NCBI RefSeq assembly: GCF_028622115.1
Contig: NZ_CP097263.1
Span: 9,249,501-9,313,500, forward strand
Source: Kutzneria chonburiensis
GTDB taxonomy: Bacteria; Actinomycetota; Actinomycetes; Mycobacteriales; Pseudonocardiaceae
Length of the DNA: 64,000 nt
Direction of reading: 5' to 3'
This document shows, one piece after another, positions 25,809 through 54,908 of the stretch (within the stretch, counting starts at the first letter, position 1; every line of letters begins with the position of its first letter). Both the position numbers and the translations under genes were made by a program. The notes beneath the pieces are model-generated. The model had not been told where the DNA came from. It did no database searches and worked only from the letters and a program-made list of their open reading frames with translations.

Positions 25809-26315
25809 GTCTTCCGCCTCCCAGCCAATCGGTGCCTGACAACATCGCGGCGCTCGCAGCGGTGTGACGCACCCCGGCCGACGACGTGACGCGGGTTTCG
25901 CGGCCAGATCGTGCCCGTCCCCGTGGATGATCACGCCGTGCTGCTGCTTAGCCTCGCACGACCGAGCGGTCGATTGTCACCTGGGAGGGTGATCAGGCAC
26001 CCCGGCCCGGACCCCCGACCACCGCTTTTAGTCAGAAGGGCGGAAGCGGTGGCCGCCCGTTCGGGCGATCACGCCTACTCTCCGCCGGCTCGGCGTTCAC
26101 ACCGGCCCGATCGTCCTCGGACGCCGCGACCTGCCGTTTTTCTCCGCTTCGCCGGTTTGCGGCAGTGTCGACGGACTGCACTGGTTTTGCAAACTGCTCC
26201 AGTTCGTCGGACTGCTCCGAGCCGCACACCGTCCCCACGGCGTTGCGCACGGTCGCCGCGACGACCTCCACCACGTCGTGCGAACTGCACTACTTTGCAA
26301 AACTTCTCGAGTTCG
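25809..26315. other. Non-coding region with two AT-rich elements
   Basis: About 500 bp between the small gene (25808) and the MFS stop codon. I find no gene with a ribosome site. The right half holds two related AT-rich elements (26181-26218 and 26291-26339), listed separately. Confidence 0.55.
26181..26218 (+). repeat. AT-rich dispersed element, copy A
   Basis: It contains TTTTGCAAACTGCTCCAG followed by TTCGTCGGACTGCTCC, inside a GC-rich context. The flanking sequence (ACTGCACTG upstream, CGCACACCGTC downstream) also matches copy B about 107 bp away, so the duplicated unit is roughly 60 bp. Confidence 0.65.
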
Positions 26316-26339
26316 TCAAACTGCTCGACTTCGCACGAC
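26291..26339 (+). repeat. AT-rich dispersed element, copy B
   Basis: The clearest copy: TTTGCAAAACTTCTCGAG, then TTCGTCAAACTGCTCG and ACTTCGCACG. It overlaps the 3' end of the MFS gene and supplies its TGA stop codon (26316-26318). Confidence 0.7.
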
Positions 26340-27944
26340 CGTCTCGCCGTCGACAGTCTCGACCGCGATGCCAGTCTCGACGGAGATGCCAGTCTGGACC
26401 TCGATGCCAGTCTCGGTCGCGATGCCGGTCTGGACCGCTACGCCAGGCTCGGTCGCGATGCCGGTCTGGACCGCTACGCCGGTCTCGGTCGCGATGCCAA
26501 TGTCGGTCGCCGTGACGACCTCGGCCGTATCACCGGCCGTCGCCGTCGCCGGCCGGCTCATGGTCGCCGCCGCGTCGCCGTCCTTGATCAGCAGTGCCAC
26601 CGCACCGGACGCGATCATCAGCCCCGCGGCCACGGCGAACGCCACGTGGTAGCCGACCAGGCTGCCCGTGCCGCCCGAAGTTCCACTGCTGAACGCGGCG
26701 AGCACGCTGCCCAGCACCGCCACGCCGATCGCCGACCCGGCCTGCCGGCCCGAGTTGTACAGCGTGGACGCCCGGCCGGTCTTGGCCGGCGGCACCTGGG
26801 CGAACGCGGCCGTCTGGGCCGGGTTGAAGTTGTTGGACATGCCCAGCCCCAGGTAGAACATGATCAACATGACCACCCACTGCGGGGTGGCCGCCCCGAC
26901 CAGCGTCATGAGCATCATCGCCACGGCGGCATTCACCACGCCGAGCACGATGTGCAGCCGCGGCCCGAGCGTCGAGTAGACCCGACTGGCAATCTGCGTG
27001 CCGACCAGCACACCGACCGCCTCGGGGAAAGTCGTCAGCCCGGTCTGCCACGCCGAGACACCGAGCCCGGCCTGGTAGAGCAGCGGGAACACGAACAGCG
27101 TGCCGAGGAACCCGGCCGTCGACATCAGCTGCACGACGTTGATGCTGCGGAACAGCCGGTCCCGGAACAGCCGCAGGTCCAGCATCGGTTCCGGCACGCG
27201 CAGCTCAACCAGCACGGTCGCGGCCAACAGCAGCGCGCCCAGCACGCCGGTGATCACGATCTGCGTCGCGCCCCAGCCCAGCGTGGCGCCCTCGGTGAGC
27301 GCGTACATCAGGAGCGCGAACCCGACGCCGGAGAGCAGGAAGCCGGCCACGTCGAACCGCCCGGCGCCCGGCTCACGGTGCTCACGCAGCAGAAACAGTC
27401 CGAATAGGAAGGTCAGGACGCCGACCGGCAGGTTGACGTAGAACACCCAGCGCCACGACAGCGTGTCCACGAGCAGCCCACCCAGCACCGGTCCCATCGC
27501 CGGCGCGACGGCCGTGGGCAGGATCAGCACACGGTTCACCCGCATGCGCTCGGCCAGCGGGAACTCCCGGTACAGCATGGCGAGGCCGATCGGCGCGAGC
27601 ATGCCGCCGCCCAGACCTTGGAGCAGCCGGAACCCGACGAGCTGGGGGAGTGTCTGGGCCACGCCACACAGCGCCGATGCCAGCGTGAAGACGGCCAGCG
27701 CAACAAGGAACACCCGCTTGGTGCCGAACCGGTCGCCCAGCCAGCCCGACGCCGGGATCACCAGGGCCAGGCTGAGCAAGTAGCCGACGACGACCGCACC
27801 GGCGTCGGCTGCGGTCACGCGGAACTGGCCGGCGATCGTCGGCAGCGCGACGTTGACGATCGTGGTGTCGAGGATGTTGAGGAAGAGCGCGGCGACGAAG
27901 ACGACGCTGACGACGACCTTCGGGCTCAGCTGACGTAACCCCAC
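26316..27944 (-). CDS. MFS drug exporter, DHA2 (EmrB/QacA) type, with repeat tail
   Basis: A 542-residue, 14-helix major facilitator: motif A GDRFGTKRVF, motif C-like region PAMGPVLGGLLVD, and further DHA2 features. It should export hydrophobic drugs by proton antiport. The last 65 residues lie outside the membrane core and consist of hexapeptide repeats of the type TGIATE/TGVAVQ, encoded by 18-bp tandem repeats; typical members end soon after helix 14. GTG 27944 has GAGGGAG upstream. A perfect 9-bp inverted repeat at 27961 is a likely operator. The stop codon comes from an AT-rich element. Confidence 0.92.
   Translation of the reverse strand: MGLRQLSPKVVVSVVFVAALFLNILDTTIVNVALPTIAGQFRVTAADAGAVVVGYLLSLALVIPASGWLGDRFGTKRVFLVALAVFTLASALCGVAQTLPQLVGFRLLQGLGGGMLAPIGLAMLYREFPLAERMRVNRVLILPTAVAPAMGPVLGGLLVDTLSWRWVFYVNLPVGVLTFLFGLFLLREHREPGAGRFDVAGFLLSGVGFALLMYALTEGATLGWGATQIVITGVLGALLLAATVLVELRVPEPMLDLRLFRDRLFRSINVVQLMSTAGFLGTLFVFPLLYQAGLGVSAWQTGLTTFPEAVGVLVGTQIASRVYSTLGPRLHIVLGVVNAAVAMMLMTLVGAATPQWVVMLIMFYLGLGMSNNFNPAQTAAFAQVPPAKTGRASTLYNSGRQAGSAIGVAVLGSVLAAFSSGTSGGTGSLVGYHVAFAVAAGLMIASGAVALLIKDGDAAATMSRPATATAGDTAEVVTATDIGIATETGVAVQTGIATEPGVAVQTGIATETGIEVQTGISVETGIAVETVDGETVVRSRAV
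26367..26510. repeat. 18-bp tandem repeat, eight units, inside the MFS 3' end
   Basis: Eight 18-bp units read on the plus strand as GATGCCAGTCTCGACGGA and variants, with no length variation; a partial unit precedes them. On the coding strand they give a hexapeptide repeat tail. Confidence 0.92.
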
Positions 27945-27960
27945 CGCTCGGCTCCCTCAA

Positions 27961-27991
27961 GGAATGTTTGCATGCGACAACGAAACATTCC
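27961..27991. promoter_or_regulatory. Operator candidate upstream of the MFS exporter
   Basis: GGAATGTTT-N13-AAACATTCC, a perfect 9-bp inverted repeat starting 16 bp upstream of the GTG. Its size and place suit a TetR- or MarR-type repressor; a decayed MarR gene lies at 28718. Confidence 0.7.
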
Positions 27992-28055
27992 AACAGGGAC
28001 GGCTCGGGGGTTGTTCCTCGGACGAGGTGATCCGTGCTGCGGGGTGGGCCGGGTC

Positions 28056-28481
28056 TCAGCCCAGGTCGTAGGGCATCAGGGTGGTGAGCGCGTCGTCGAC
28101 GCTGACCCAGCTGCCCTCGGTGCCCGGCAGGACCAGGTCGTAGGTGCGGTCGAGGAAGTCGGCCAGCTCCTGCGCGGACGCCTCGAACATGGCCAGGCCG
28201 GCCGGCGAGCTGACCACCAGCACGACGAGCTCGATGTCGTCGACCGCGGGGCGGATCCGGACGTCGCCCGAGCCGGCTTCGGCGATCAGACCGTCGGCCA
28301 GCAGGTCGCGGGCGAAGCACCACTCCACCCAGCCCGACGGGCCGGAGCGGAAGGCGGCTGTCACGGCGTACGGGTCACGGGTGTCGTAGCGAAGTTCGAC
28401 CTCGACCGGGACCGACGGTGCGTCGGGCACCAGCAGGTCCAGCACCGCCATCGAGCGGAGCGTCATGTGGTCGTTACGCAT
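28056..28481 (-). CDS. ssgB: SsgA/SsgB-family sporulation and cell-division regulator
   Basis: A 141-residue SALP protein (MRNDHMTLRS..., VELRYDTRDPYAV, SGWVEWCFARDLL, ADFLDRTYDLV). The VPVEVELRYDTRDPYAV block is the SsgB hallmark. SsgB positions FtsZ for sporulation septa and is restricted to morphologically complex actinomycetes, so it is the best taxonomic marker in the window. ATG 28481 has GAGGGGTGA upstream; a longer in-frame GTG start lacks a site. Monocistronic. Confidence 0.93.
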   Translation of the reverse strand: MRNDHMTLRSMAVLDLLVPDAPSVPVEVELRYDTRDPYAVTAAFRSGPSGWVEWCFARDLLADGLIAEAGSGDVRIRPAVDDIELVVLVVSSPAGLAMFEASAQELADFLDRTYDLVLPGTEGSWVSVDDALTTLMPYDLG

Positions 28482-28717
28482 CGTGTTCACCCCTCGGCTT
28501 CCCGACACTCGTCCTGAGTCAACAGTGGCGGAGTCCTCTGGAGAACTTGTCCACGTTCACTCAATGTCGCCCCCAGGCGGAGTTGCCCGCTCAATCTGTC
28601 ACTCATCCGGGTGGCGGTCCAGCGGTTTCGTCATTCACCGTACGAAAGTGTGGGGATATGACCTGAAAAGGGGAACGGTCTTGCCCCTGTTGTGACCACT
28701 TTCCAACGTGATGATCG

Positions 28718-29115
28718 CTACACCCGCGCGCCCTCCGGGTCCGCGACATCCCGGCCTGGGTGTCGCCGACCGTGCAGCACGCGCCGCTGCACCGCCACTT
28801 CCTCCGTGCTCAGCCAGCCGAGCACGGCCCGTCCGATCAGTTCCAGTTCGAGCAGGAAGACCACCTGGCCTGGCGACTCTTCTCTGTCAGCTCGGGATAC
28901 GCACGCGACGGTCGCTCGGATCAGGTGGCCGTGCGATCGGTTCGAGTTGCTCCATCCGGTCCAGGGCGGAAGTCAAGGTCGTCTCGGCCGACCGTCTTGC
29001 CCTGGATCAGCGGTGTTAGCGCCAACGGCCTCAGGGCACCTCGACCGTAGGGCTGTCTGAATCTCGCCGCGCCAGTCCGCCGGCCGCATCCGCGATGGCG
29101 CGAGCGTGGCGTCAC
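28718..29115 (-). pseudogene. Decayed MarR-family regulator
   Basis: Read on the minus strand with frame changes, the pieces line up with a MarR winged helix: GALRPLALTPLIQG, then TTLTSALDRMEQLEPIARPPDPSDRRVRIP (wing signature PDPSDRR), then LTEKSRQ, then LLELELIGRAVLGWLSTEEVAVQRRVLHG as the C-terminal dimer helix, ending at TAG 28718-28720. At least two one-base shifts separate the pieces, one of them a missing base near CCCGAG. No continuous frame exists. It may once have controlled the MFS exporter (inference). Exact ends are uncertain. Confidence 0.65.
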
Positions 29116-29266
29116 ACCTTCTCTTAGGGGCTTACGCCGTCTAATTGGGCCGTCCAGCGGTGTCGGTCTTCACGACACGCCGGTATAGGACGGTCCCCTC
29201 GTTCCCGGTCGTCCGCTGCCAGACTTGCCCGAGTTGCCTGGTCCGGCTGGTGGGAGGACGCAAGCG

Positions 29267-31135
29267 ATGGGCGAACCGCTCGGAGACGTACTCGATCGAG
29301 CAGCCAGGTTGAGTGCCTCCGGCCGGCGTCGCAAAGCGGTTGCCCTGCTGCGCAGCACCGCCGACTCCCATCCCGACAGCTCAGAGGTCTGGTGCCGGCT
29401 GGCCGCCGCGCTGCTGGATCGTGGCGACGCGGCCGCTGCCCTGATCGCCGTGCGTCGGGCGATGCCGCTCGGTGGGGACAGGGCGTGGGCACACCGTCTC
29501 GCCAGCAAGGCCTTGAGCCGCCTCGGCCGTCACGAGGAGGCCGTCGCCGCCGCTCGGCAGGCTGTCCGCGCCGCGCCCTCCGACTGGCGTTGCCGCATCG
29601 CCCTCGCCGAGGTGTTCGGTGCAGCCGGCAGTTGGCCCGACGCCGTCGATGCCGCTGCGCAGGCCGTCCGCTACCAGCCCGACCACGTCCGGCCGTACCT
29701 CATCTTGGGCGATGCCGCCCGCCGGACCGGCGACCTCGCCACCGCCGAGCGCGCTTACCGCACCGCCTTGCGTCGCAAACCGGGCGACCCTCGCGTTCGC
29801 GCCGAACTCACCCGTCTCCGCCAGGCCAGCTCCCGTGACGCCGACCTCCCTGGCCCGCGTCGACCCCGCTCCGGTCTCGACAACTTCGCCGAAAACGAGA
29901 AGTTTGCAAAAATCCAGGAGTTCGCAACTCTCGAGGATGTCGACCAACCCTCGGGTTTCGACCAGCTTCCCGCAGGAGGCCGTCCCTCCCGACCGTGGAC
30001 GGCCTCCTCCGGCTGGTCAGATGACTGGCAGCCCCGCAGCTCCGCCCACGACCCCAACCACCGCGCCGCCGCCCATCCCGACAACCGTGCCAGCGGCAAC
30101 CGTTCCCTGCTCAACCGTCTCATGGGCAACCATTCCGCCGGGGACCTTCCCACGCTCAACTATCCCGACAGCACCCCGTTCCCCGACGACCACCCGGCCG
30201 TCGCCCACCCCGCGCCCGGTCGACCTTCTGTAGTTCGCCAAAACCGAGCATTTCGCAAATCTTCTGCACTCGGTCGAACTCCTGCCGACGACCGCGCGCC
30301 AGATGATGGCTGGCCATCCCCCGGCCGTTGGACACTCGGCCGCCCGGCAACCGACCCGCCCGCCCCTAACCGCGCGAAGCCCAGCCACTCGTCGCGCCCC
30401 GACCGTTCGTCGGCGGTCGGCCGAGCTTCAGAGGGTGGCCGCTCGTCGGGAATCGGTTGGTCTGCCGCTGACGGTGTGGCGGTCGGAAACTCGTCGCGAC
30501 TCGACAGCTCCTCTGCGGTTGGTCGTTCGCCGGTGGGTGGTCGGTCGTCGGGAACTGGTTGGTCTGCCGCTGACGGCGTGGAGTCCGGCCAACTGTCGCG
30601 AGCTGGCCGTCCTTCGGCGGTCGGTCGAACGCCAGAGGTCGCTCGGTTGCCACGGACCAAGTGGTCTGCCGCTGACAATGTGCAGGCCGGCCACTCGTCG
30701 CGAGCCGGCCGATCTCCGGCAGGCGGCCGACCTTCAGAGGTCGGTCGGTCGCCGGTGGCGGAGAAGCTGGCGTGGCGCGTGGTCCGTCAGCTGTCCGTGG
30801 CCGTGGCGATCGCCGGCATGTTCCTGATGGTCGCCGGCCTGCCGAAGCCCACTCCGGTGTTGGCGTGGCTCGGTTTCGCCATCCCGTGTGTGGTCCTGGT
30901 GCTGGCCGTCGTCGAGGTGTTCCGGGTGCCGTCCGGGCTTCGGTTCGCCGTGCTGACCATGCCGCTGCGCCGCCCGGTGATCGCCCTGGCGTGGGTGCTG
31001 CTGGCATTGGCCAACGCCCTCGTGCTGCTCTGGGCCATGCTCGACCGCGTCAACGCCGGCACGATGGAGCCGCTGATCTTCGCCCTGGTCTGCGCGGTCT
31101 GCGCCGGCGCGGTGTCCCTGGTCAACGAGGCGTAG
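29267..31135 (+). CDS. TPR protein with repeat-rich linker and C-terminal membrane domain
   Basis: A 622-residue protein from ATG 29267 (GGGAGG upstream). Residues 1-190 are about five TPR-like helical pairs (AVALLRSTADSHPDSSEVW, AVAAARQAVRAAPSDW, DAVDAAAQAVRYQPDH, AERAYRTALRRKPGDP). Residues 195-500 are a low-complexity, Pro/Ser/Arg-rich linker that includes two AT-rich elements and 34-residue tandem repeats. Residues 510-615 hold three to four membrane helices. Similar actinobacterial proteins exist with a short linker; the inflated linker is the oddity. Function unknown, probably a membrane-tethered scaffold. Confidence 0.78.
   Translation: MGEPLGDVLDRAARLSASGRRRKAVALLRSTADSHPDSSEVWCRLAAALLDRGDAAAALIAVRRAMPLGGDRAWAHRLASKALSRLGRHEEAVAAARQAVRAAPSDWRCRIALAEVFGAAGSWPDAVDAAAQAVRYQPDHVRPYLILGDAARRTGDLATAERAYRTALRRKPGDPRVRAELTRLRQASSRDADLPGPRRPRSGLDNFAENEKFAKIQEFATLEDVDQPSGFDQLPAGGRPSRPWTASSGWSDDWQPRSSAHDPNHRAAAHPDNRASGNRSLLNRLMGNHSAGDLPTLNYPDSTPFPDDHPAVAHPAPGRPSVVRQNRAFRKSSALGRTPADDRAPDDGWPSPGRWTLGRPATDPPAPNRAKPSHSSRPDRSSAVGRASEGGRSSGIGWSAADGVAVGNSSRLDSSSAVGRSPVGGRSSGTGWSAADGVESGQLSRAGRPSAVGRTPEVARLPRTKWSAADNVQAGHSSRAGRSPAGGRPSEVGRSPVAEKLAWRVVRQLSVAVAIAGMFLMVAGLPKPTPVLAWLGFAIPCVVLVLAVVEVFRVPSGLRFAVLTMPLRRPVIALAWVLLALANALVLLWAMLDRVNAGTMEPLIFALVCAVCAGAVSLVNEA
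29881..29940 (+). repeat. AT-rich dispersed element, copy C
   Basis: It contains AACGAGAAGTTTGCAAAAAT, followed by CCAGGAGTTCGCAACTCTCGAG; in frame within the TPR protein linker it reads ENEKFAKIQEFATLED. Its core matches the reverse complement of copy B. Confidence 0.65.
30221..30284 (+). repeat. AT-rich dispersed element, copy F
   Basis: TAGTTCGCCAAAACCGAG then CATTTCGCAAATCTTCTGC then ACTCGGTCGAACTCCTG. It aligns with copy B over the CGCAAA-CTTCT part and is in the linker of the TPR protein. Confidence 0.55.
30389..30763. repeat. 102-bp tandem repeat, about 3.7 units, in the TPR protein
   Basis: Units start at 30389, 30491 and 30593 with a partial one at 30695. Each opens with TCGTCGCG (CTGTCGCG in the third) and contains GTGGTCTGCCGCTGAC or GGTTGGTCTGCCGCTGAC. 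The in-frame length keeps the protein open and gives 34-residue repeats containing WSAADG. Confidence 0.9.
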
Positions 31136-31232
31136 CCGCGCCCGGACAAGCGCGGGACAAGCGGCACGTCAGCCGCCGCGGGCAGCATTCCGGTGTGACT
31201 GATCGATGGTCATCCGCGCCGGAGGTGCGCTC

Positions 31233-32624
31233 GTGAGCGGCTTGGGTCTCGACCCCGTCGCCGAGACCGTCTACCTGACGGCACTGACGCGCGTCCGATG
31301 GCGGCTCGCCGACCTCGCTCGCCACGTCGACGTCGCCAGCCGGCCCGACGATCGCCCCCACACCAACAGCGCTCCCGGCGACGGCGTCGACCGGCTCTGC
31401 CCCGACGGTCCCACTGTTGCCGGGCAGCCTCGCCCAGACGCCCGCTCCGCCGAGGCCGCCGACCAAGTCCGCTTAGACGACGGTGCTGGTGCTCCCGGCG
31501 ATTCCCGGTCGGACCGTTGTCTGCCGGCTTCCGCTGATCAGGTCTGCCCCAGTGATCGTGCTGGTGTGCTCGGCCGCTCCCGGCCGGACGGCTGTCTGCT
31601 GCCTTCCAGTGGCCAGGCGCGGTCCGGTGGCCGCGTGGTTGCGGGTGCCGAGCAGCTCGGCTCTGGTGGTGCGGGCGAGCAGTCTCGCCCAGACGGCTGG
31701 TCTGGAGAGGCCGCCGAGCTGGTCCGCGCCGACGAAGCTGCTGCTCGGCGGCGATCTCGACCGGACGGCCGTCTGCTCGCGTCCGCTGATCGGGCTCGCT
31801 TCGACGACCGGTTCGTCGCGGCCGTCGACCGGCTCCGCACCGACGGTCTGCTTGTGGCATCCGCCGAGGAAAGTGGCGCGGTCCGTGCCGTCGATCCGGC
31901 CCTCGGGCTGCCGGCGCTGGCCGCGAGTCGGGTGTGGGGTCTGAGCGCCGGCGACTCGCGGCCGCAGGCCCTGGCGATCGCCCAGGTCATCGCCCGCCAC
32001 GAGCCGTCAGCGGCCGATCGCCTTCACGGGCTGGACGAGATGAACTCGTTCGCCGAACATCTCGTCGCCAATGCCCGTCGCGAGGTCGTGATCCTCAGCG
32101 GACAGCACCGGACCGGCTCGTTCGAGTTCGCGGTGCCGGTCGCCGAGGCCGTGCTGCGTCGCGGTGCCGAATTTCGACTTCTATGGCGCAGCGAACTGAT
32201 TCGCACGCCCACCGTTGCCGCGCACGCCACCTGGCTGCGCTCCCGTGGTGCCGCGCCCCGCATCGTCCAAACGTTGCCGACGAGCATGCTGCTGGTGGAT
32301 CGGTCCGTCGCCGTGGTCATCACCGGCGATGATGCCGTGGTCAACCGCGCCGCCTCAGCGGTCGCACCGCTCTGCATGCTCGCCGACCAGCTCTGGGCCA
32401 ACAGCAGTCCGGGTCCCCGCCGTCAGCACACGGCCGACCAGACGCCGCGCCACCACAAGGTCCTCCGCCTGCTGGCCGACGGACTGACCGACGACGCCAT
32501 CGCCCGCCAAGTCGGCGTCAGCGTCCGCACGGTTCGCAACGACATGGCCGCGGCCATGCTCAGCCTCGACGCCCGCAGTCGCTTTCAAGCCGGCGTCCGC
32601 GCCGCCCAACTCGGTCTGCTCTGA
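31233..32624 (+). CDS. LuxR-family regulator with TrmB-like start, PLD-like sensor and repeat-inflated linker
   Basis: A 463-residue protein. GTG 31233 is set by GGAGG at 31221-31225; an ATG at 31206 lacks a site. Residues 1-30 (LGLDPVAETVYLTALTRVRWRLADLARH) match the degenerate winged helix at the start of TrmB/LuxR hybrids. A PLD-like sensor region follows at about 265-390 (SFAEHLVANARREVVILSG, TSMLLVDRSVAVV), then an HTH LuxR domain (LRLLADGLTDDAIARQVGVSVRTVRNDM). Between wing and sensor lie about 190 residues of imperfect repeats that ordinary members lack (they are near 320 residues). It starts 97 bp downstream of the TPR membrane protein on the same strand. Confidence 0.85.
   Translation: MSGLGLDPVAETVYLTALTRVRWRLADLARHVDVASRPDDRPHTNSAPGDGVDRLCPDGPTVAGQPRPDARSAEAADQVRLDDGAGAPGDSRSDRCLPASADQVCPSDRAGVLGRSRPDGCLLPSSGQARSGGRVVAGAEQLGSGGAGEQSRPDGWSGEAAELVRADEAAARRRSRPDGRLLASADRARFDDRFVAAVDRLRTDGLLVASAEESGAVRAVDPALGLPALAASRVWGLSAGDSRPQALAIAQVIARHEPSAADRLHGLDEMNSFAEHLVANARREVVILSGQHRTGSFEFAVPVAEAVLRRGAEFRLLWRSELIRTPTVAAHATWLRSRGAAPRIVQTLPTSMLLVDRSVAVVITGDDAVVNRAASAVAPLCMLADQLWANSSPGPRRQHTADQTPRHHKVLRLLADGLTDDAIARQVGVSVRTVRNDMAAAMLSLDARSRFQAGVRAAQLGLL
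31430..31865. repeat. Imperfect ~42-bp motif repeated six times in the LuxR gene
   Basis: CGGCCGGACGGCTGTCTGCT and variants recur at spacings of about 60-90 bp, each followed by a CCGCTGATCAG/CCGCCGAGCTG-like end. They give SRPDG-type peptide repeats and keep the frame open. Confidence 0.65.
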
Positions 32625-32714: not shown

Positions 32715-33152
32715 TCAGCCGTTCATACACGGGGAGTTTTGCAAAAGCTCGTTTTTGACGAACTCCTCGACTTCGTCGGAGACGTCTGTTGTGACGGTCA
32801 GGTGCGGCTGGACATCGTCGCCGAACTCGCCGCCGTAGGGCTGATGGGCCGGCCAGCGCGCGGCGATCCGACGGGTGAGCACGCGGAACGGCTCCTCCGG
32901 TTCGGGCCGCAGATACAGCACCGTTGGAAAGCGACGGAACTCGGCCAACCGGACGTCGATCGGCGCGGTTTCGGCGAAGATCGCGGCCAGGGCCAGCCCG
33001 TCCTCGTCGGTCAACAGATCCATCGGCACCCACGGGTACAGCACCGTCACGTGAGCCTCGACCGCCCGCGGCGGAACGCCCGGTCGATCTAGGAGCGGCT
33101 CCACGGCCAGTACGGGGATGATCACGCCGGTGACGCCGACAGGCAAGGTCAT
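32715..33152 (-). CDS. 2'-5' RNA ligase/phosphodiesterase family protein, frameshifted near its 3' end
   Basis: A 145-residue reading from ATG 33152 with the two HxT motifs of the 2H phosphoesterase fold (AHVTVLYPW and PHLTVTTD). It ends early at 32715. In the other frame the sequence continues with the expected family ending (VYERLTEAWLVHSDG...WLRRATFPFG) and stops at 32635. Adding one base to the T5 run at 32752-32756 joins the two into a normal 172-residue protein. So it is either recently broken or carries a sequence error. The break lies inside an AT-rich element copy. Divergent from the TTC38-like gene with only 18 bp between. Confidence 0.8.
   Translation of the reverse strand: MTLPVGVTGVIIPVLAVEPLLDRPGVPPRAVEAHVTVLYPWVPMDLLTDEDGLALAAIFAETAPIDVRLAEFRRFPTVLYLRPEPEEPFRVLTRRIAARWPAHQPYGGEFGDDVQPHLTVTTDVSDEVEEFVKNELLQNSPCMNG
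32729..32780 (+). repeat. AT-rich dispersed element, copy D
   Basis: GAGTTTTGCAAAAGCTCG then TTTTTGACGAACTCCTCGACTTCG. It coincides with the frameshift of the RNA-ligase-like gene. Here the match could be partly natural coding, because FAKLP fits the protein family. Confidence 0.5.
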
Positions 33153-33170
33153 GGCCGTATTGTCGGAGGA

Positions 33171-34867: not shown

Positions 34868-35353
34868 GTGCCGATCCGAATCCTGCACGCCGACGACGCC
34901 GCCCGCTGTGACGAGATCATCGCCGCACTGCCGTACTTCTTCGGCATCCAGGCCGGCGTCGATGCCTGTGCCGAGGCCGTCCGCACCCATCGAGGCTGGG
35001 TCGCCGAGGTTGACGGTGTCGTCGCCGGCTTCCTCACGGTCGAACAGCTCATCAACCCGGAAATTTCCTGGCTGGCGGTGCACCCGGAACATCGTCACCA
35101 CGGCATTGGCAAGGCCCTCGTCGCCGCTGCTGTCGATGTTCTGGCCAGTGAAGGTCACACGCTGCTCACCGTGCTCACGCTCGGGCCCTCGGTCGTCGAA
35201 CAGCCGACCGACAACTACTCCGGCACGCGCCGCTTCTACCGCTCGGTCGGCTTCGAGGCCGTCCGGGAGCTCGATCTCGTCGGCTGGGAGCAGGCCGCCC
35301 TGCTGTTGGTCCGTCGACTGGACCGACACTCGTCCACTGTGGTCAATAGTTGA
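34868..35353 (+). CDS. GNAT-family N-acetyltransferase
   Basis: A 161-residue GNAT with a clear acetyl-CoA motif (WLAVHPEHRHHGIGKALVAAA, R/QxxGxG/A as HHGIGK) and ending GTRRFYRSVGF...VGWEQAALLL. GTG 34868 begins PIRILHADDAARCDEI; the ribosome site is weak. It ends inside the base of the large AT-rich hairpin at 35350. Substrate unknown. Confidence 0.83.
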   Translation: MPIRILHADDAARCDEIIAALPYFFGIQAGVDACAEAVRTHRGWVAEVDGVVAGFLTVEQLINPEISWLAVHPEHRHHGIGKALVAAAVDVLASEGHTLLTVLTLGPSVVEQPTDNYSGTRRFYRSVGFEAVRELDLVGWEQAALLLVRRLDRHSSTVVNS

Positions 35354-35404
35354 TTGTGTTGATCCATGTTGACAAGTCTCGTCAACATGGATCAACACAA
35401 TCAA
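35350..35404. repeat. Perfect 24-bp AT-rich inverted repeat with 7-nt loop
   Basis: Arms 35350-35373 and 35381-35404 are exact complements around AAGTCTC. They contain TTGATCCATGTTGAC and are far richer in A/T than the surroundings. The hairpin lies between the convergent GNAT and DAHP synthase genes, so it could terminate both, but it lacks the GC-rich stem and T tail of the other terminators here. Confidence 0.85.
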
Positions 35405-43141: not shown

Positions 43142-43174
43142 CCCGAAACCCCGCCGACCTGCGCTTGCGCTGTG

Positions 43175-43222
43175 GACCAGTCCGACGAACTCGAGCTTTT
43201 TTGCATTTTCGAGAAGTTCGCC
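43175..43222 (-). repeat. AT-rich dispersed element, copy E
   Basis: Read on the minus strand: GAACTTCTCGAAAATGC then AAAAAAGCTCGAGTTCGTCG then GACTGGTCC. The 3' part matches copy A almost base for base. It lies in the 5' untranslated region of ssuE. Confidence 0.65.
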
Positions 43223-43231
43223 ATCCGAGGG

Positions 43232-43322
43232 GAAGTTCGCCGACGAGGTCGAAGTCGGCGGTCGAGGGGAAGTTCGTCGGTCGAGAGCAGTTCGTCAGTG
43301 GAGAGCAGTTCGTCGGCGGAGC
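43232..43322. repeat. 18-bp tandem repeat, five units, in the ssuE leader
   Basis: Units of 18 bp (the first 19) with consensus GAAGTTCGTCGGTCGAGA. They lie between the cysteine leader peptide and ssuE and must be transcribed. No protein need be encoded. Confidence 0.85.
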
Positions 43323-43929: not shown

Positions 43930-45035
43930 TGTACTGCCTTGGGAGGTTGCGAACGGGCAGACACGTGAACCGATGATCTTGAAATGAGGGAAGGCCTCCA
44001 GGTTCGGTGTGGATTGCGACGTCTACACCGAGCGCCCGGAGGCCCTCATGCCCCACCGTAACGCACCCTTGACCGAGCTGGGCAGGCTGCGGCTGGCCCG
44101 CTGCGTCGTGGACGACGGTTGGCCACTGCGACCAGCGGCCGACCGGTTCCAGGTCTCGGTCAGCACCGCTCAACGCTGGGCGCGGCGCTACCGCCAACTC
44201 GGTGCCGCTGGCATGGTCGACCGGTCCTCCCGTCCTCACACCAGCCCTGGCCGTACCCCTACCCGCACCGAACGCCGCATCATCAAGGTCCGCGTACTAC
44301 GCCGCTGGGGACCGGCCCGCATCGCCTACCTGCTCGGCCTGAACCCGGCTACGGTGCACCGGGTGCTGCGTCGCTACGGCCTGGCTCGCCTGACGCATCT
44401 GGACCGCGCCACCGCGCACCCCATCCGCCGCTACGAACGCGACGCTCCCGGCGACCTGATCCACGTCGACATCAAAAAGCTGGGCAACATCCCCGACGGC
44501 GGCGGTCACCGGGTGCACGGCCGTCAGATCGGCGGCCGCAACAGCCAACGCACCGCCACCGCGACCCGCAGCGCCTACCGCAACCCCTTGCTGGGCTACG
44601 GATTCCTGCACAACGTGATCGATGATCACTCCCGTCTGGCCTACACCGAGATCCTGCCCGACGAGACCAAGGAAGCCGCCGCCGCGTTCTGGCAGAGGGC
44701 GCAGACCTTCTTCCACACCAACGGAATCACCGTCAAACGGGTACTCACTGACAACGGGTCCTGCTACCGCTCACGACTCTGGCGCGACACCCTGGCCGCC
44801 GCAGACATCACCCACAAACGCACCCGCCCCTACCGGCCCCAGACCAACGGCAAAGTGGAACGGTTCAACCGCACCCTGCTCGACGAATGGGCCTACGCCC
44901 GCCCCTACCGGTCCGAGACCGAACGCCGCCAGGCCCTGCCGCAGTGGCTACACGCCTACAATCACCACCGCGGCCACACCGCGCTCAAGGGCCTACCCCC
45001 AGCCAGCCGCGTTCCCAACCTCACGGGTCAGAACA
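43930..45035 (+). mobile_element. Complete IS481-family insertion sequence
   Basis: 1106 bp. The ends are imperfect inverted repeats, 20 of 27 positions identical: TGTACTGCCTTGGGAGGTTG at the left, TGTTCTGACCCGTGAGGTTG at the right. It is flanked by a 6-bp duplication CCTAGA at 43924-43929 and 45036-45041, which fits the NCTAGN preference of IS481. It carries one transposase gene. It sits at the point where the convergent ssuE and MocR genes share a CTAG stop-codon overlap. Confidence 0.92.
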
Positions 45036-45040
45036 CCTAG
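44048..45040 (+). CDS. IS481-family transposase
   Basis: A 330-residue transposase from ATG 44048 (MPHRNAPLTELGRLRLARC, the usual IS481 opening). An HTH region (RPAADRFQVSVSTAQRWARRY) is followed by the rve integrase core with DDE residues: Asp in LIHVDIKKLG, Asp in VLTDNGSCY, Glu in NGKVERFNRTL. All look intact, so the element may be active. The reading frame passes through the right inverted repeat, and the stop TAG (45038-45040) lies in the target duplication outside the element. Confidence 0.95.
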   Translation: MPHRNAPLTELGRLRLARCVVDDGWPLRPAADRFQVSVSTAQRWARRYRQLGAAGMVDRSSRPHTSPGRTPTRTERRIIKVRVLRRWGPARIAYLLGLNPATVHRVLRRYGLARLTHLDRATAHPIRRYERDAPGDLIHVDIKKLGNIPDGGGHRVHGRQIGGRNSQRTATATRSAYRNPLLGYGFLHNVIDDHSRLAYTEILPDETKEAAAAFWQRAQTFFHTNGITVKRVLTDNGSCYRSRLWRDTLAAADITHKRTRPYRPQTNGKVERFNRTLLDEWAYARPYRSETERRQALPQWLHAYNHHRGHTALKGLPPASRVPNLTGQNT

Positions 45041-46430
45041 ACCAGCTTGCGCAACGCCGTGACCAGGGCCTTTGCGGCGGCTGGATAGGTATGGCCCGGG
45101 GAGTGGCGTAACCGATGACGAGCCCGGTGGGCGCCGAGTCGTGGCGACGCGCGTATTCGGACAGCAGATGGGCATCGACGCCGTGTTCGGTGAGCACGGC
45201 TCGGATGTCGTCGTCGGGGATTCCGTCCGGAAGCAGCAATGTGACGTGCAAGCCGGCGGCGATGCCGATCGGTCGGACCTGCGGCACGGCTGTGGCCAGC
45301 GCATCGAGCAGGTGGTCGCGCCGCTTCCGGTAATGCGTGCGCATTCGACGAAGATGACGGTCGAGTCCGCCGCTGTCGACAAGGTGGGCCAGCGCCAACT
45401 GCTCGAAGACCGGGCACTGCCGCTCGGACAGCAGCCGGATCCGGACGATGGGCTCGATCAGTCGTTCCGGCACGGCCAGCCAAGCCATCCGCATGGCCGG
45501 GGCCAGCGACTTGCTGGCCGTCCCGGCATAGATGACGTGCTCCGGGGCCAAACCCTGGATCGCGCCGATCGGCTGACGGTCGTAGCGGAACTCGCCGTCG
45601 TAGTCGTCTTCGACGATCACCGCGTTGTTGTCACGCGCCCAGTCGACCAGCGCGCCACGGCGAGCGGGGTGCAGCCGCGTGCCCCACGGCAGCTGGTGCG
45701 ATGCGGTGACCAGCGCGGCGTCGGCGTTGGGAAGTTCGTCGACAACGAGGCCGTCGTCGTCGAGCCGGGCAGTCTGTGTTTGCAGTCCGGCGTGCTCGAT
45801 CGCCTCGACGTGGAACGGCAGGCCGTAATTTTCGACGGCCATCGTCTGGCCACCGCGCTCGCGCAGTGCGGCGGCGATGAGCCGCAGACCGTTTGTGAAC
45901 CCAGTACACACGATAATTGCCTGTGAACTGGTGCGCACACCACGGACGCGTCCCAGGTAGTCGGCCAGCGCCCGACGCAGCTCGGGGTGTCCACGGGGAT
46001 CGCCGTAGCGGAGGTCCTCGTCGGCGGCGACCGTGACGGCATGCCGCAACGCCGATGCCCACGTCGACCGCGGGAACTGGCTGACGTCCGGGTTGCCCGG
46101 GGCCAGGTCGTACGGAACGGAGACGTTTTTCAAACTTCTCAATTTCGTACGAGTTCCTGCTCCCGGCACGGCCGCCACCTCGGTGTGCGTCCGGGACCGG
46201 CTTGTCAGATAACCCTCGGCGAGCAACTGCTCGTAGGCCTGCACAACAGTCCCGCGTGAAAGTCCGAGGTCGTTTGCCAACGCGCGGGAGGACGGCAACT
46301 GAGTGCCCGCCGCCAGCCGGCCGGAACGGATGGCCTCCCGCAGCGAACGCTCCAGCGCCGCCCGGCGGCCGACTCCCGGCTCCAGATCGAGGTGCAGCTC
46401 CAGCCCACCGCTGGTCCATGATTCTGGCAT
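45021..46430 (-). CDS. MocR/PdxR-type GntR regulator with aminotransferase domain, C-terminus frameshifted
   Basis: A 469-residue reading from ATG 46430. The N-terminal GntR winged helix (LPSSRALANDLGLSRGTVVQAYEQLLAEGYL) is joined by a linker to a fold-I aminotransferase domain with PLP contacts (VEDDYDGEFRY, GTASKSLAPAMRM with the Schiff-base Lys). The last 23 residues are abnormal. One extra base in CCCGGGG at 45095-45101 would restore the usual end (GYATPPGHTYPAAAKALVTALRKLV) with a stop at 45037 in the target duplication. The linker contains an AT-rich element. Divergent from the CMD/PEP-mutase-like pair, which it probably regulates. Confidence 0.88.
   Translation of the reverse strand: MPESWTSGGLELHLDLEPGVGRRAALERSLREAIRSGRLAAGTQLPSSRALANDLGLSRGTVVQAYEQLLAEGYLTSRSRTHTEVAAVPGAGTRTKLRSLKNVSVPYDLAPGNPDVSQFPRSTWASALRHAVTVAADEDLRYGDPRGHPELRRALADYLGRVRGVRTSSQAIIVCTGFTNGLRLIAAALRERGGQTMAVENYGLPFHVEAIEHAGLQTQTARLDDDGLVVDELPNADAALVTASHQLPWGTRLHPARRGALVDWARDNNAVIVEDDYDGEFRYDRQPIGAIQGLAPEHVIYAGTASKSLAPAMRMAWLAVPERLIEPIVRIRLLSERQCPVFEQLALAHLVDSGGLDRHLRRMRTHYRKRRDHLLDALATAVPQVRPIGIAAGLHVTLLLPDGIPDDDIRAVLTEHGVDAHLLSEYARRHDSAPTGLVIGYATPRAIPIQPPQRPWSRRCASWSRCSDP
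45036..45041. repeat. Right target-site duplication CCTAGA
   Basis: Direct copy of 43924-43929. It provides the transposase stop codon on the plus strand and the expected MocR stop codon on the minus strand. Confidence 0.9.
46120..46160 (-). repeat. AT-rich dispersed element, copy G
   Basis: On the minus strand GAACTCGTACGAAATTGAG then AAGTTTGAAAAACGTCTCC. GAAATTGAGAAGTTTGAAAA aligns with GAAAACGAGAAGTTTGCAAAA of copy C. It falls exactly in the linker between the DNA-binding and aminotransferase domains of the MocR protein. Confidence 0.6.
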
Positions 46431-46470: not shown

Positions 46471-46477
46471 CATTACC

Positions 46478-49748: not shown

Positions 49749-49834
49749 GAATGGGTGACGTTCTGGACAGCGTGTTCGTTACAGGTCAGTTTTTCGGCGA
49801 ACAACCCGGGCCGGGGTGGCCCACCGTCACCGCC

Positions 49835-49840
49835 TAGGAT
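49835..49840 (+). promoter_or_regulatory. Likely -10 box for glycyl-tRNA synthetase
   Basis: TAGGAT, about 67 bp before the GTG at 49907. The short leader contains TTGCC-N10-GGCAA, a small hairpin. No T-box features (stem I, T-box sequence) are visible. Confidence 0.45.
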
Positions 49841-49906
49841 CGACGGTCTCTGGTGCGTGTTCGGCCAGCTCAAGTTGCCCGCGACCGATGGCAAGAGGGT
49901 TCACCC

Positions 49907-52891
<2,985 letters not shown>

Positions 52892-52906
52892 GTTGTGCTC
52901 GACCCG

Positions 52907-52939
52907 GCGGCCCCGTCTCACTTTGTGAGGCGGGGCCGC
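52907..52939. terminator. Bidirectional terminator between glyQS and tetR
   Basis: A 15-bp stem (GCGGCCCCGTCTCAC with its partner, one G-T pair) around a TTT loop, starting 15 bp after the synthetase stop. Confidence 0.88.
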
Positions 52940-52943
52940 TTCG

Positions 52944-53531
52944 CTACTCGGGCTTGTTGTCCGGCACCTGGCGGGCGGCGTTGATGACGCTGCGGATGAC
53001 GGCCTGGATGCGGTCGGACACCGTCGCCGGATCGGGCTGGCCGGCGTCCAGCCACGCCATGATCGTTTCGACCAGTACCAGCGGAATGCTGGCCGCGGCC
53101 CACGTCGTCCAGGCCGGGTCGGCGATGCGGCCGGCGATCTGGTCGTAGGTGGCGTCGGCCATGCCCTGCCGGACCTGTTCGACGATCGAGCTGAACTCGG
53201 GCTCACGGGCGGCATGCCGGTACAGCAGACGGAAACCGTCGGGCTCGGCCGCCGCGGCGGCGATGAACGCCTCGAGCGTTTTCGCCGAGATCTCGTCGCC
53301 TTCGGTCGCCACCCGGATGCGGTCGCCCACCCGGACCAGCGCCTGCTCGTAGAGATCCCGCTTCGACTCGAAGTGCCGGTACACGATCATCCGGCTGATG
53401 CCGGCCTCCCGGGCCACGTCGTCGAGGCTCGTCGCGGCGAAGCCGGCCCGCGCGAACGCCGTCGTCGCCGCCGCCAGGATCTGCTCCCGCCGCTGCGCCC
53501 GGGGTAGTCGCTCGCTGCGCTGTTCCGTCAC
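52944..53531 (-). CDS. TetR-family regulator of the P450 gene
   Basis: A 195-residue TetR protein: HTH (RREQILAAATTAFARAGFAATSLDDVAREAGISRMIVYRHFESKRDLYEQAL) and an AcrR-type C-terminal domain. GTG 53531 is preferred because AGGA lies 8 bp upstream; GTG 53537 is an alternative. It is divergent from the P450 gene, and the palindrome between them is its likely operator. Confidence 0.9.
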   Translation of the reverse strand: MTEQRSERLPRAQRREQILAAATTAFARAGFAATSLDDVAREAGISRMIVYRHFESKRDLYEQALVRVGDRIRVATEGDEISAKTLEAFIAAAAAEPDGFRLLYRHAAREPEFSSIVEQVRQGMADATYDQIAGRIADPAWTTWAAASIPLVLVETIMAWLDAGQPDPATVSDRIQAVIRSVINAARQVPDNKPE

Positions 53532-53571
53532 GGGCACTGTCCTACCAGGTCGTTGATGTTGACACCCGTGT

Positions 53572-53589
53572 GTATATTTCAAAGTATAC
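53572..53589. promoter_or_regulatory. TetR operator candidate at the P450 promoter
   Basis: GTATATTT-CA-AAGTATAC, an inverted repeat with one mismatch, 22 bp before the P450 start codon and 41 bp before the TetR start. Strongly AT-rich in context. Confidence 0.65.
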
Positions 53590-53610
53590 CTTTTTGGGGA
53601 GGGGTACACG

Positions 53611-54789
53611 ATGACCGATTTGCCGCAGTTGCCGTTCGCGCGGACCGGCCTGCTCGACGCGCCGCCGCAACTGCTGAAGCTCCAGGCCGAAGGCCCGATT
53701 GGCCGGATCCGTACCCAGGTCGGCGACGAGGCGTGGCTCGTCACTCGCTACGACGAGGTGCGCGAGCTGTTCGCCGACCCGAGGCTGGGCCGCTCGCACC
53801 CGAATCCGGAGCAGGCCGCGCGTCTGACCAACTCCGCGATCATGAGCGGCGCGGTGGACGACAAGGATGAAGACACCAACCACGCGATGATGCGAGCCCT
53901 GCTCATGCCCGCGTTCTCGCCGCGCCGGATGCGAGCCATGCGGCCGCACGTCCAGGAAATCGTCGACAGCATCATCGACGGCATGCTGGCCGACGGTGGT
54001 CCCGTCGACCTGCACGAACGGCTGTCGATGCCGCTGCCCGTGCTGGTCATCTGCGCCCTGCTCGGCGTGCCGTACGAGGACCGGGACGACTTTCGAGCCT
54101 GGTCCGACGGCGTCGGCGACATGATCGACGGCGCCCGCTCGGCCGCCGCGTGGGGCAACCTCACCACGTACATGAAGGACCTCATCAACCAGAAGCGGAC
54201 CCAGCCCGGCGACGACCTCATCAGTGACCTGCTCGCCGACTACGGCGACAAGATCGGCGACGACGAGCTCGCCGCCCTGTCCGCCGGCCTGCTGTTCGCC
54301 GGCCACGAGACCACCATGGTCCGCATCGATGTCGGCACGGTGCTGTTCCTGACCAACCCCGACCAGCGCGAGGCGTACGTCCAGGACGACAAACTCGCCG
54401 CCTCCGCCATCGAGGAGGTCTTGCGCTGCGGCATCAACGGCGGCGGTGGGCTGCTCCGCTACGCCCGTGAGGACATGGAGATCGCCGGCACCAAGATCAA
54501 GGCTGGCGACGCCGTACTGCTCGGCGCGGCCGCCGCCAACCGGGACGAGCGGGCTTTCCCCGATGCCGCCCGGTTCGACATCTCTCGGACCGCCAACCAG
54601 CACCTCAGCTTCGGCCACGGGGCCCGCTACTGCATCGGCGCCAACCTGGCCCGCCTCGAACTCCAGATCGTGTTCGACGCCCTGCTCCGCCGAATCCCCA
54701 CCTTGCGCCTCGCCGTCCCCGTCGAGGAACTAGAACTGCGCGTCAACCAGCTCGGCGGCGGCCTCGTCGCTGTTCCCGTCACCTGGTGA
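53611..54789 (+). CDS. Cytochrome P450
   Basis: A 392-residue bacterial class I P450. The I-helix motif is AGHETT (230-235, with Glu in place of Asp), the ExxR pair is in AIEEVLR, and the heme loop is FGHGARYCIG with axial Cys341. It needs ferredoxin and reductase from elsewhere. Strong GGGGAGGGG ribosome site. TetR control is likely. Substrate unknown; proximity to no clear biosynthetic cluster leaves detoxification or tailoring open. Confidence 0.95.
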   Translation: MTDLPQLPFARTGLLDAPPQLLKLQAEGPIGRIRTQVGDEAWLVTRYDEVRELFADPRLGRSHPNPEQAARLTNSAIMSGAVDDKDEDTNHAMMRALLMPAFSPRRMRAMRPHVQEIVDSIIDGMLADGGPVDLHERLSMPLPVLVICALLGVPYEDRDDFRAWSDGVGDMIDGARSAAAWGNLTTYMKDLINQKRTQPGDDLISDLLADYGDKIGDDELAALSAGLLFAGHETTMVRIDVGTVLFLTNPDQREAYVQDDKLAASAIEEVLRCGINGGGGLLRYAREDMEIAGTKIKAGDAVLLGAAAANRDERAFPDAARFDISRTANQHLSFGHGARYCIGANLARLELQIVFDALLRRIPTLRLAVPVEELELRVNQLGGGLVAVPVTW

Positions 54790-54804
54790 CGACCGGCGGC
54801 TGCG

Positions 54805-54908
54805 CCGAGTTTTGCCAACTTCTGGAAACTCGCGCAGTCGCCCACGTTTGCAACCCACATCAGGTCGACCGAAGTTGAGGAGTTTGGCGAAGTCGAGGAC
54901 TTTGGCGG
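54805..54908. repeat. AT-rich dispersed element, copy H (composite)
   Basis: GAGTTTTGCCAACTTCTGG and AAACTCGCGCAG on the plus strand, then on the minus strand GACTTCGCCAAACTCCTCAA and CTTCGGTCGAC. Two half-copies in opposite orientation fill the 120 bp between the P450 gene and the GntR gene. Confidence 0.55.

What the first reader, a model, noticed from the sequence alone, without database searches (positions are those of the whole stretch)
26181..54908. Family of short AT-rich elements dispersed in both orientations
About nine copies (26181, 26291, 29881, 30221, 32729, 35427, 43175, 46120, 54805) share a core like TTTGCAAAACTTCTCGAG plus TTCGTC, very A/T-rich against a GC-rich genome. They are not all in one reading frame. 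They sit in protein linkers, in untranslated regions, at the 3' ends of genes (where they supply or sit next to stop codons), and one at a frameshift. Copies A and B are a 60-bp direct duplication. This looks like a miniature invading repeat comparable in habit to palindromic elements that insert into bacterial proteins, and I know of no named family with this core.
Basis: seen in the sequence. Interest (0 to 1): 0.8.

Follow-up and report, generated by a model that had tools for sequence, protein, structure and literature searches.

The report
Locally confined 18-bp bacterial repeat family
In the soil bacterium Kutzneria a short DNA repeat, built from an 18-letter half-palindromic unit, is packed into gaps and protein linkers of one 150-kilobase stretch of an otherwise ordinary chromosome, recurs in the matching stretch of four sister species, and is spelled differently in this species at many separate places, which points to local copying or to a local binding site rather than to a jumping element.

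Summary
The copies are units of degenerate tandem arrays with an 18-19-bp period: a 9-bp palindrome (TTCGNCGAA; in this genome often TTTGCAAA) plus roughly CTNCTCGAC, in both orientations. In a genome search 22 of 23 model matches at E<=0.01 lie in 9,275,672-9,424,337, 1.4% of 10.41 Mb; 400 kb of controls have none that good (best E 0.36). GAGNAGTTTGCAAA (<=1 mismatch) occurs 8 times, 7 there. The region is core, syntenic Kutzneria DNA, and four sisters carry length-variable arrays in many of the same spacers. K. viridogrisea shows none in the 54 kb examined. In the host genes aligned, coding copies are mostly base replacements without length change. At 5 of 5 alignable sites this genome has TTTG..CAAA where relatives have TTCGNCGAA or a one-mismatch form. 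Best reading: a fast-turning-over satellite family of one chromosomal neighbourhood, whose units are re-copied between neighbouring loci (inferred). Main rival: a domain-specific protein-binding site that switched its word. Six library searches named no such family.

The parts
26172..26222 (+). copy A (TTTGCAAA at 26186), spacer next to the 3' end of the MFS gene
   Evidence: profile match E 5.4e-9 genome-wide (in the training set)
26281..26333 (+). copy B, best match in the genome; overlaps the 3' end of the MFS gene (26316-27944 -)
   Evidence: E 1.1e-11 (in the training set); single-copy blastn seed
26354..26499 (.). 18/36-bp tandem array with a different unit (CAGTCTCGACCGCGATGC), coding part of the C-terminal tail of the MFS protein
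   Evidence: TRF score 194; Pfam MFS_1 covers residues 18-407 of 542
29872..29924 (-). copy in the hypervariable linker of a TPR protein; in frame, hexapeptide-like units (NFAENEKFAKIQEF)
   Evidence: E 9.8e-9 (in the training set); translations of five orthologues
30221..30270 (-). second copy in the same linker
   Evidence: E 5.8e-6 (in the training set)
29225..31135 (+). host ORF: TPR N-terminus, hypervariable linker, conserved C-terminus; longest ORFs 535-636 aa in five species
30387..30755 (+). 102-bp tandem array inside the same linker
   Evidence: TRF score 305
32725..32775 (+). copy in the 3' part of an antisense ORF; TTCGCCGAA of K. buriramensis reads TTTTGCAAA here with one base fewer
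   Evidence: E 4.8e-7 (in the training set); alignment with three relatives
32715..33152 (-). antisense ORF, 145 aa; G001 and G003 continue past this point, G002 also ends early, none found in G004; no Pfam match
43168..43220 (-). copy at the start of a spacer array
   Evidence: E 1.4e-7 (in the training set); blastn E 0.03 from copy B alone
43211..43316 (.). 18-bp tandem array (unit TCGTCGGTCGAGAGCAGT) in the 376-bp spacer before the FMN reductase gene; related arrays in 398-702 bp spacers of G002-G004, one unit in 183 bp of G001
   Evidence: TRF scores 56-81; orthologous spacers
46114..46164 (+). copy in the linker between the GntR and aminotransferase domains of a MocR-type regulator; no indel against three orthologues in that part
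   Evidence: E 3.7e-5 (in the training set); alignment
54809..54826 (+). weak copy (TTTTGCCAACTTCTGG) in a convergent spacer
   Evidence: seen in sequence; not recovered by the profile
54870..54919 (-). two tandem 18-bp units in the same convergent spacer (P450 / GntR gene ends)
   Evidence: E 3.3e-7 (in the training set); TRF score 62; >=7 units in the same spacer in each of the four relatives

Best explanation
It is a degenerate, fast-turning-over satellite (minisatellite) family with an 18-19-bp unit: palindrome P (TTCGNCGAA) plus Q (about CTNCTCGAC). It arose in the ancestor of five Kutzneria species inside one core neighbourhood of about 150 kb and has largely stayed there. Shown: tandem structure, regional confinement, conserved places with length turnover in four relatives, in-frame growth inside protein linkers, and a G000-specific palindromic spelling (TTTG..CAAA) standing in place of TTCGNCGAA at dispersed loci, one of them inside the KARI gene. 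Inferred: arrays grow and shrink by slippage or unequal exchange; unit sequence is copied between neighbouring loci by short-tract templated events (template switching or gene conversion primed by the shared P/Q words), which spreads a new spelling through the neighbourhood without inserting DNA; a reach of tens of kb explains the confinement.
For: Confinement. Periodicity of 18 or a multiple (z>4) in 7 of 103 spacers of G000 9.15-9.55 Mb, all 7 inside 9.273-9.424 Mb (one of them, at 9273044, has an unrelated 37-bp unit), against 0 of 106 control spacers, 0 of 44 in G004 controls and 1 weak of 61 in G003 controls. Core and orthologous: region centres 1.90-2.06 Mb from dnaA on the same side in G000 and G002-G004; gene-by-gene synteny, mostly 75-100% amino-acid identity. 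Same places, changing length: spacer 9359624/9359733 is 51-363 bp and 9384305/9384469 is 163-373 bp in five species. In G000 alone 13 of 103 spacers >=40 bp (9.225-9.437 Mb) hold >=3 units, against 3 of 209 controls. Dialect: TTTG(0-2)CAAA occurs 12 times in 400 kb, all 12 in the zone at 9 places; it is 11 of 26 palindromes in G000 zone spacers and 0 of 53 in the relatives'. In place: 5 of 5 alignable sites, all at orthologous places. Copying: 7 pairs of array places (5 pairs of loci, 9-109 kb apart) share AT-richer words of >=15 bp; 0 of these 17 words, but 33 of 39 other shared words, occur in the fetched regions of the other four species. The KARI coding site shares GAGGAGTTTGCAAAATT with an array 55 kb away.
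Against: Similarity of units within genomes over that between genomes is small (0.507 against 0.500; 5 of 1000 permutations reach it) and no single genome is significant beyond 12 of 300. Shared words as such are not more frequent in the G000 zone than in controls. G003 has a related array about 550 kb away (3314413-3314879) and an array 40 kb beyond the G000 limits. The genome search scored 150 of 4606 candidates. Among about 43 of 118 predicted zone proteins scanned, some in part, the only recombination enzyme is an IS481 transposase not found in the sister regions. Substitution bursts also occur without P/Q words (27 isolated bursts in G000), so a single coding copy could be chance. The frameshifted ORF ends early in G002 too and was not found in G004, so its damage says little about cost. 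The 12 TTTG..CAAA sites were chosen by their spelling.
Confidence: 0.47

Rival explanations
1. The palindrome P is the recognition site of a dimeric DNA-binding protein that marks or organises this chromosomal neighbourhood (working like matS or parS sites). In this species the protein changed its preference and the sites followed by selection, TTCGNCGAA to TTTG..CAAA.
For: Changes are symmetric and keep the palindrome. Over all five genomes complementary pairs 1-9, 3-7 and 4-6 exceed permutations (z 3.5, 5.2, 3.9), pairs 3-6, 2-7 and 12-18 do not (-1.0, 1.7, 0.8). Sites occur in coding and non-coding DNA of one domain in five species.
Against: Pair 2-8 reaches only z 1.8; rows are related copies, so z is inflated; in G000 alone the 'control' pairs 3-6 and 2-7 reach 2.8 and 3.0, as high as the facing pairs, which fits the 8-bp form TTTGCAAA but weakens the test. 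Copy number varies strongly between sisters. The domain is not at oriC. No binding protein identified.
Confidence: 0.24
2. An ancestral satellite that decays: arrays were seeded once in this neighbourhood and have since only expanded, contracted and mutated at each place, with no exchange between places; the G000 spelling is chance or mutation bias.
For: Arrays sit at many of the same spacers in all five species; the within-genome signal is weak overall; GC->AT changes outnumber AT->GC in coding DNA of all five genomes.
Against: The same paired change at 5 of 5 alignable dispersed sites, a spelling unseen in the other species' zone spacers; genome-specific shared words across 9-109 kb; gains in new places (spacer at 9233792 in G003; subtilase linker in K. 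buriramensis).
Confidence: 0.2
3. The units derive from intrinsic terminator hairpins at gene ends, kept because they end transcription between convergent genes.
For: In the convergent spacer 9359624/9359733 a hairpin GTCGACTTCGCCGG...CCGGCGAAGTCGAC is visible in G000, G002, G003 and G004; two arrays fold far better than shuffles (z -5.84, -6.25).
Against: Folding z-scores of 12 arrays run from -6.25 to +1.80; of 23 array junctions 6 are convergent (of 30), 13 tandem (of 109), 4 divergent (of 30); terminators would be needed all over the genome, not in 1.4% of it.
Confidence: 0.05
4. A miniature mobile element (MITE, REP or RPE type) that inserts into spacers and proteins.
For: Dispersed copies in both orientations, palindromic core, some in-frame copies.
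Against: No fixed boundaries; coding copies without length change in the host proteins aligned; regional confinement; no Y1/RAYT-type transposase among about 43 zone proteins scanned.
Confidence: 0.03

Closest known systems
Dispersed non-coding satellite families of prokaryotes (Leptospira interrogans, Methanocella conradii; PMC6749651, passages read)
   Same: Related tandem arrays at many separate intergenic places, implying movement of satellite sequence, which that paper calls rare in prokaryotes.
   Different: There scattered throughout the genome (L. interrogans) and with long repeats; here an 18-bp degenerate unit in one core neighbourhood of 150 kb, seen in five species. The same paper notes C. 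difficile satellites clustered in two regions, but unrelated to each other.
Tandem repeats of Borg elements (PMC9879509, passages read)
   Same: Fast-evolving tandem repeats both between genes and, with unit lengths divisible by three, inside ORFs as disordered regions.
   Different: Borg repeats are near-perfect, A-enriched and arise independently; here the units are degenerate and form one family across many loci of a bacterial chromosome.
Rickettsia palindromic elements / MITEs (PMC10969869, passages read)
   Same: Short palindromic sequence found in frame inside unrelated proteins.
   Different: RPEs are insertions of ~150 bp; here the coding copies checked are in-place replacements or growth of an array.
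REP/BIME elements (recalled)
   Same: Short palindromic words grouped in both orientations, mostly extragenic.
   Different: REP units are genome-wide separate hairpins; here tandem 18-bp units in one region.
matS / parS chromosomal-domain sites (recalled)
   Same: Palindromic sites restricted to one chromosomal domain, also inside genes.
   Different: matS and parS are conserved in sequence; here sites lie in variable arrays and the word differs between sister species.

Membership tests
Bacterial minisatellite / satellite family | Head-to-tail tandem repetition with a fixed period | tested here: met
   Period 18-19 or 36-37
Bacterial minisatellite / satellite family | Repeat-number variation between relatives at the same locus | tested here: met
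   Orthologous spacers of 51-363 bp and 163-373 bp with arrays
Bacterial minisatellite / satellite family | Same unit at several loci (a family, not a single array) | tested here: met
MITE / RPE | Insertion: orthologue lacks the DNA and differs in length by the element | tested here: not met
   No indel at the KARI and MocR copies; amidohydrolase 379 aa against 374-377 aa with no gap at the copies; in place at 5 of 5 alignable sites
MITE / RPE | Target-site duplication and terminal inverted repeats | tested here: inconclusive
   None seen by eye in the gains inspected; boundaries too degenerate for a formal test
REP/BIME | Dispersed over the genome | tested here: not met
   22 of 23 matches at E<=0.01 in 1.4% of the genome (150 of 4606 candidates scored); 2 matches, best E 0.36, in 400 kb of controls
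REP/BIME | Associated RAYT/Y1 transposase | tested here: inconclusive
   Not among about 43 of 118 predicted zone proteins scanned with Pfam; rest of the genome not searched
matS/parS-like domain site | Restricted to one chromosomal domain | tested here: met
   In G000; in sisters by the model only in part: 16 of 21, 8 of 14, 15 of 26 and 7 of 13 matches at E<=0.5 in one region
matS/parS-like domain site | Bound by a dedicated protein | not testable with these tools
   Needs pull-down or ChIP
matS/parS-like domain site | Sequence conserved between close relatives | tested here: not met
   TTTG..CAAA 11 of 26 in G000 zone spacers, 0 of 53 in relatives
Known RNA family | Match to a curated Rfam model | tested here: not met
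   Only a tRNA at 21153-21225 in the window at gathering scores

The most novel reading that the evidence does not exclude
A chromosomal neighbourhood of a bacterium carries a private palindromic word, repeated in spacers, linkers and genes, whose spelling is held together within the neighbourhood and is switched as a set during speciation: by a distance-limited templated rewriting process that edits short tracts in place, coding sequence included, or by a co-evolving protein that defines the neighbourhood. Either would be an unrecognised form of local concerted evolution in bacteria.
Probability: 0.25. Interest if true: 0.85.

Novelty: new variant of a known kind. Interest (0 to 1): 0.62.

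Why it matters
Repeat families in bacteria are usually explained by a transposase and are then genome-wide, or by slippage at one locus and are then unrelated between loci. This one is a family, yet it keeps to one syntenic 150-kb core stretch in five species and appears to change short tracts in place, even inside ketol-acid reductoisomerase. If local templated copying is the cause, it gives a natural system for measuring the reach of short-tract exchange on a bacterial chromosome; if a binding protein is the cause, it marks an unknown chromosomal domain in actinomycetes. It also supplies in-frame 6-residue repeats that lengthen protein linkers.

Tried and rejected
Genome island or acquired plasmid: rejected, the region is core and syntenic. 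Genome-wide element: not supported. Family-wide element: R1 over 249 genomes of the family (23 candidates scored in each, stricter filters) gives matches at E<=0.01 in 33 of the 242 genomes outside the genus, 1-2 each, best E 4.7e-4. That is more than such E-values should give by chance; the calibration is rough and I did not follow these up. Orthologous zone in other genera: around SsgA synteny is lost in G018 and G032; 18-bp periodicity in 1 weak of 45 and 0 of 36 spacers there. Conserved RNA structure: RNAalifold finds no pairs. Plasmid or phage origin: no plasmid match; one phage match lies between copies A and B, outside the core. A first EM for the unit drifted to background and was discarded. 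CRISPR: not tested. Apparent 9-, 10- and 22-bp periodicities in G003 spacers were runs of N; spacers holding N were not dropped and in the junction rows, and were dropped from the spacer sets and later sets made from them. In the G004 row of call 61A a neighbouring gene is not the orthologue, so I dropped that row. Literature: six searches, listings seen, one empty. After re-checking, confidence went from 0.50 to 0.47 and the binding-site rival from 0.22 to 0.24, because the frameshifted ORF proved to be decayed or missing in two sisters and no longer counts as a sign of a mutational push.


Full report
What was checked. The stated core and copies are in the sequence; 18-base matches with <=3 mismatches are 3 against 0.04 expected in shuffles. 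The window is G000:C1:9249501-9313500 of a single-contig genome of 10,411,187 bp. It belongs to Kutzneria: a zone protein found Kutzneria sp. 744, sp. CA-103260, K. buriramensis and K. viridogrisea, whose contig lengths are those of G003, G004, G001 and G006. The species of G000 and G002 were not named by any search.

Anatomy. The copies are not single elements but members of tandem arrays with a period of 18-19 bp, or doubled 36-37 bp. The unit learned over five genomes from a typed seed is TTCGnCGAAnTncncgan; from G000 alone it is TTTGcCAAACTcCTCcAg. The first half is a 9-bp palindrome P (TTCGNCGAA). The second half is weak in the joint matrix, since both orientations mix; I read it from the arrays as Q, about CTNCTCGAC. 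No common RNA fold is predicted. As single-stranded DNA, 12 arrays gave z-scores from -6.25 to +1.80, 10 of 12 below zero.

Confinement. Copy B alone, blasted over the whole genome, has 6 non-self hits below E 0.05, at 3 loci between 9,292,666 and 9,384,469. A sequence-only model R1 from 17 copies has 23 matches at E<=0.01, 22 of them in 9,275,672-9,424,337; the tool scored 150 of 4606 candidates. As that model was trained on the region, other checks matter more. Twenty control stretches over the genome (400 kb) give 2 matches, best E 0.36. A unit matrix trained on the other four genomes finds 1.06 sites/kb in G000 zone spacers, 0.30 in flanks and 0.08 in controls (13 bits). The plain pattern GAGNAGTTTGCAAA with <=1 mismatch occurs 8 times in 10.4 Mb, 7 in the zone; the reversed control pattern 0 times. 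Periodicity of 18 or a multiple is found in 7 of 103 spacers of 9.15-9.55 Mb, all in 9.273-9.424 Mb (one of them an unrelated 37-bp unit), and in 0 of 106 control spacers.

Sister species. R1 matches at E<=0.5 gather in one region in four sisters: 16 of 21 in G001 (contig 10, 249-381 kb), 8 of 14 in G002 (2.19-2.30 Mb), 15 of 26 in G003 (3.85-4.00 Mb; 6 more in one array at 3.314 Mb), 7 of 13 in G004 (6.68-6.77 Mb); G005 and G006 have 12 and 7 scattered weak ones, best E 0.0385 and 0.0159. These regions are the same place: their centres lie 1.90-2.06 Mb from dnaA on the same side in G000, G002, G003 and G004 (in G001 dnaA is on another contig), and the genes match one by one, mostly at 75-100% identity. 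The genes are ordinary: clpX, trigger factor, rpiB, NAD-glutamate dehydrogenase, glycyl-tRNA synthetase, KARI, cobalamin genes, SsgA. 18-bp periodic spacers number 5 of 52, 6 of 55, 4 of 49 and 7 of 54 in the fetched 180 kb of G001-G004; controls give 1 weak of 61 in G003 and 0 of 44 in G004, none were taken for G001 and G002. K. viridogrisea shows 0 of 18 in the 54 kb at the end of its contig that cover the start of the zone; the rest was not examined. The GC-rich word GAGNAGTTCGNCGAA is also met elsewhere: 12 of 26 exact matches in the five species lie in the zones, and 22 of 82 for a longer word with one mismatch; of the 7 and 17 in K. viridogrisea none lies in those 54 kb.

Turnover. Arrays occupy the same gene junctions in several species but differ in length: 51-363 bp and 163-373 bp in two convergent spacers. 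23 of 169 junctions between 9.225 and 9.437 Mb have >=3 units in some species (13 of 109 tandem, 6 of 30 convergent, 4 of 30 divergent). Like for like, in G000 alone and for spacers >=40 bp, it is 13 of 103 against 3 of 209 controls. A gain in a new place is the 9233792 spacer in G003, 40 kb outside the G000 limits. Confinement is not absolute: G003 has a related array about 550 kb away.

Inside proteins. The TPR protein (29225-31135) has conserved ends and a linker that differs strongly in sequence and length (longest ORFs 535-636 aa) in five species. The LuxR-type protein is 472 aa here and 327-362 aa in the sisters. In K. buriramensis a subtilase linker of 11-12 residues in three relatives is 41 residues, spelled by P-Q units in a Ser/Thr frame. 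But other coding copies add nothing: the KARI and MocR parts aligned have no indels and the amidohydrolase is 379 aa against 374-377 aa with no gap at the copies. In KARI and the amidohydrolase the copies are clusters of 6-11 substitutions in 30-36 nt. Bursts without P/Q words exist too (27 isolated ones in G000), so a single case proves little.

The dialect. In G000 zone spacers P is TTTG..CAAA 11 times, TTCG..CGAA 9 and mixed 6; in the four sisters' zone spacers TTTG..CAAA is 0 of 53 and TTCG..CGAA 49. In the 400 kb all 12 TTTG(0-2)CAAA are in the zone, at 9 places. Five of the 12 align through the core in a relative, each at the orthologous place; in all five a relative has TTCGNCGAA (3) or a one-mismatch form (2). 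Read the other way, of 67 alignable P sites of relatives (14+19+21+13, partly the same places) 21 are unchanged in G000, 37 changed otherwise and 9 carry a full or half TTTG/CAAA form. One replacement has one base fewer and lies at a frameshift in an antisense ORF; that ORF also ends early in G002 and was not found in G004. Facing positions of P covary over all genomes (z 3.5, 5.2, 3.9; 1.8 for the fourth pair) while pairs 3-6, 2-7 and 12-18 do not; in G000 alone 3-6 and 2-7 do (2.8, 3.0), as expected for the 8-bp form. Copies are related, so these z-values are upper limits.

Copying between loci. Seven pairs of array places (five pairs of loci, 9-109 kb apart) share AT-richer words of >=15 bp; none of these 17 words occurs in the fetched regions of the other four species, whereas 33 of the 39 other shared words do. 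The KARI site and the array at 9384431 share GAGGAGTTTGCAAAATT. On the other hand the number of shared words is not above controls, and over all units the within-genome excess is small (0.507 against 0.500, 5 of 1000 permutations).

Judgement. Tandem structure, confinement, conservation of place, turnover and the dialect are shown. That units are re-copied between neighbouring loci is inferred; selection for a bound palindrome is the serious rival. The nearest kin in print that I found are the rare dispersed satellite families of prokaryotes (PMC6749651, passages) and the Borg repeats (PMC9879509, passages). Six searches of the open library listed no paper on this family; most subscription papers are not covered.

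Noticed in passing
35350-35404: 27-bp, 96% inverted repeat with 1 nt between the arms (TTGATTGTGTTGATCCATGTTGACAAG); G001 and G002 have a different palindrome in the same convergent spacer beside the DAHP synthase gene.
   Followed up: partly
44009-45040: IS481-type transposase gene with no orthologue in the four sister regions.
   Followed up: partly
31206-32624: LuxR-type ORF with a G000-specific expansion (472 aa against 327-362 aa) and a 75-bp periodicity near 31401.
   Followed up: partly
32715-33152 (-): Antisense ORF, longer in G001 and G003, cut here by a frameshift at the repeat copy, ending early in G002 and not found in G004; no Pfam match.
   Followed up: partly
23673-23783: 37-bp unit repeated three times just at the edge of the zone; different sequence.
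   Followed up: no
L039:6367-7416 (-): Tetrapyrrole methylase gene with a tail of 15/45-bp repeats, much shorter in the sisters: a second repeat family in the same zone.
   Followed up: partly
L041:16815-20000 and L042:1-8474: Stretch (9366815-9378474) whose predicted genes have no orthologues in the sister regions, with 168-bp repeats at 98%.
   Followed up: no
L173:9413-9879: Array with a related 18-bp unit (CTTCTCAACTCCGGCCGA) in Kutzneria sp. 744, about 550 kb outside its zone.
   Followed up: partly
33 genomes of other genera of the family: One or two weak R1 matches each (best E 4.7e-4), more than E<=0.01 should give over 242 genomes; loci L116-L131 hold sixteen of them.
   Followed up: no
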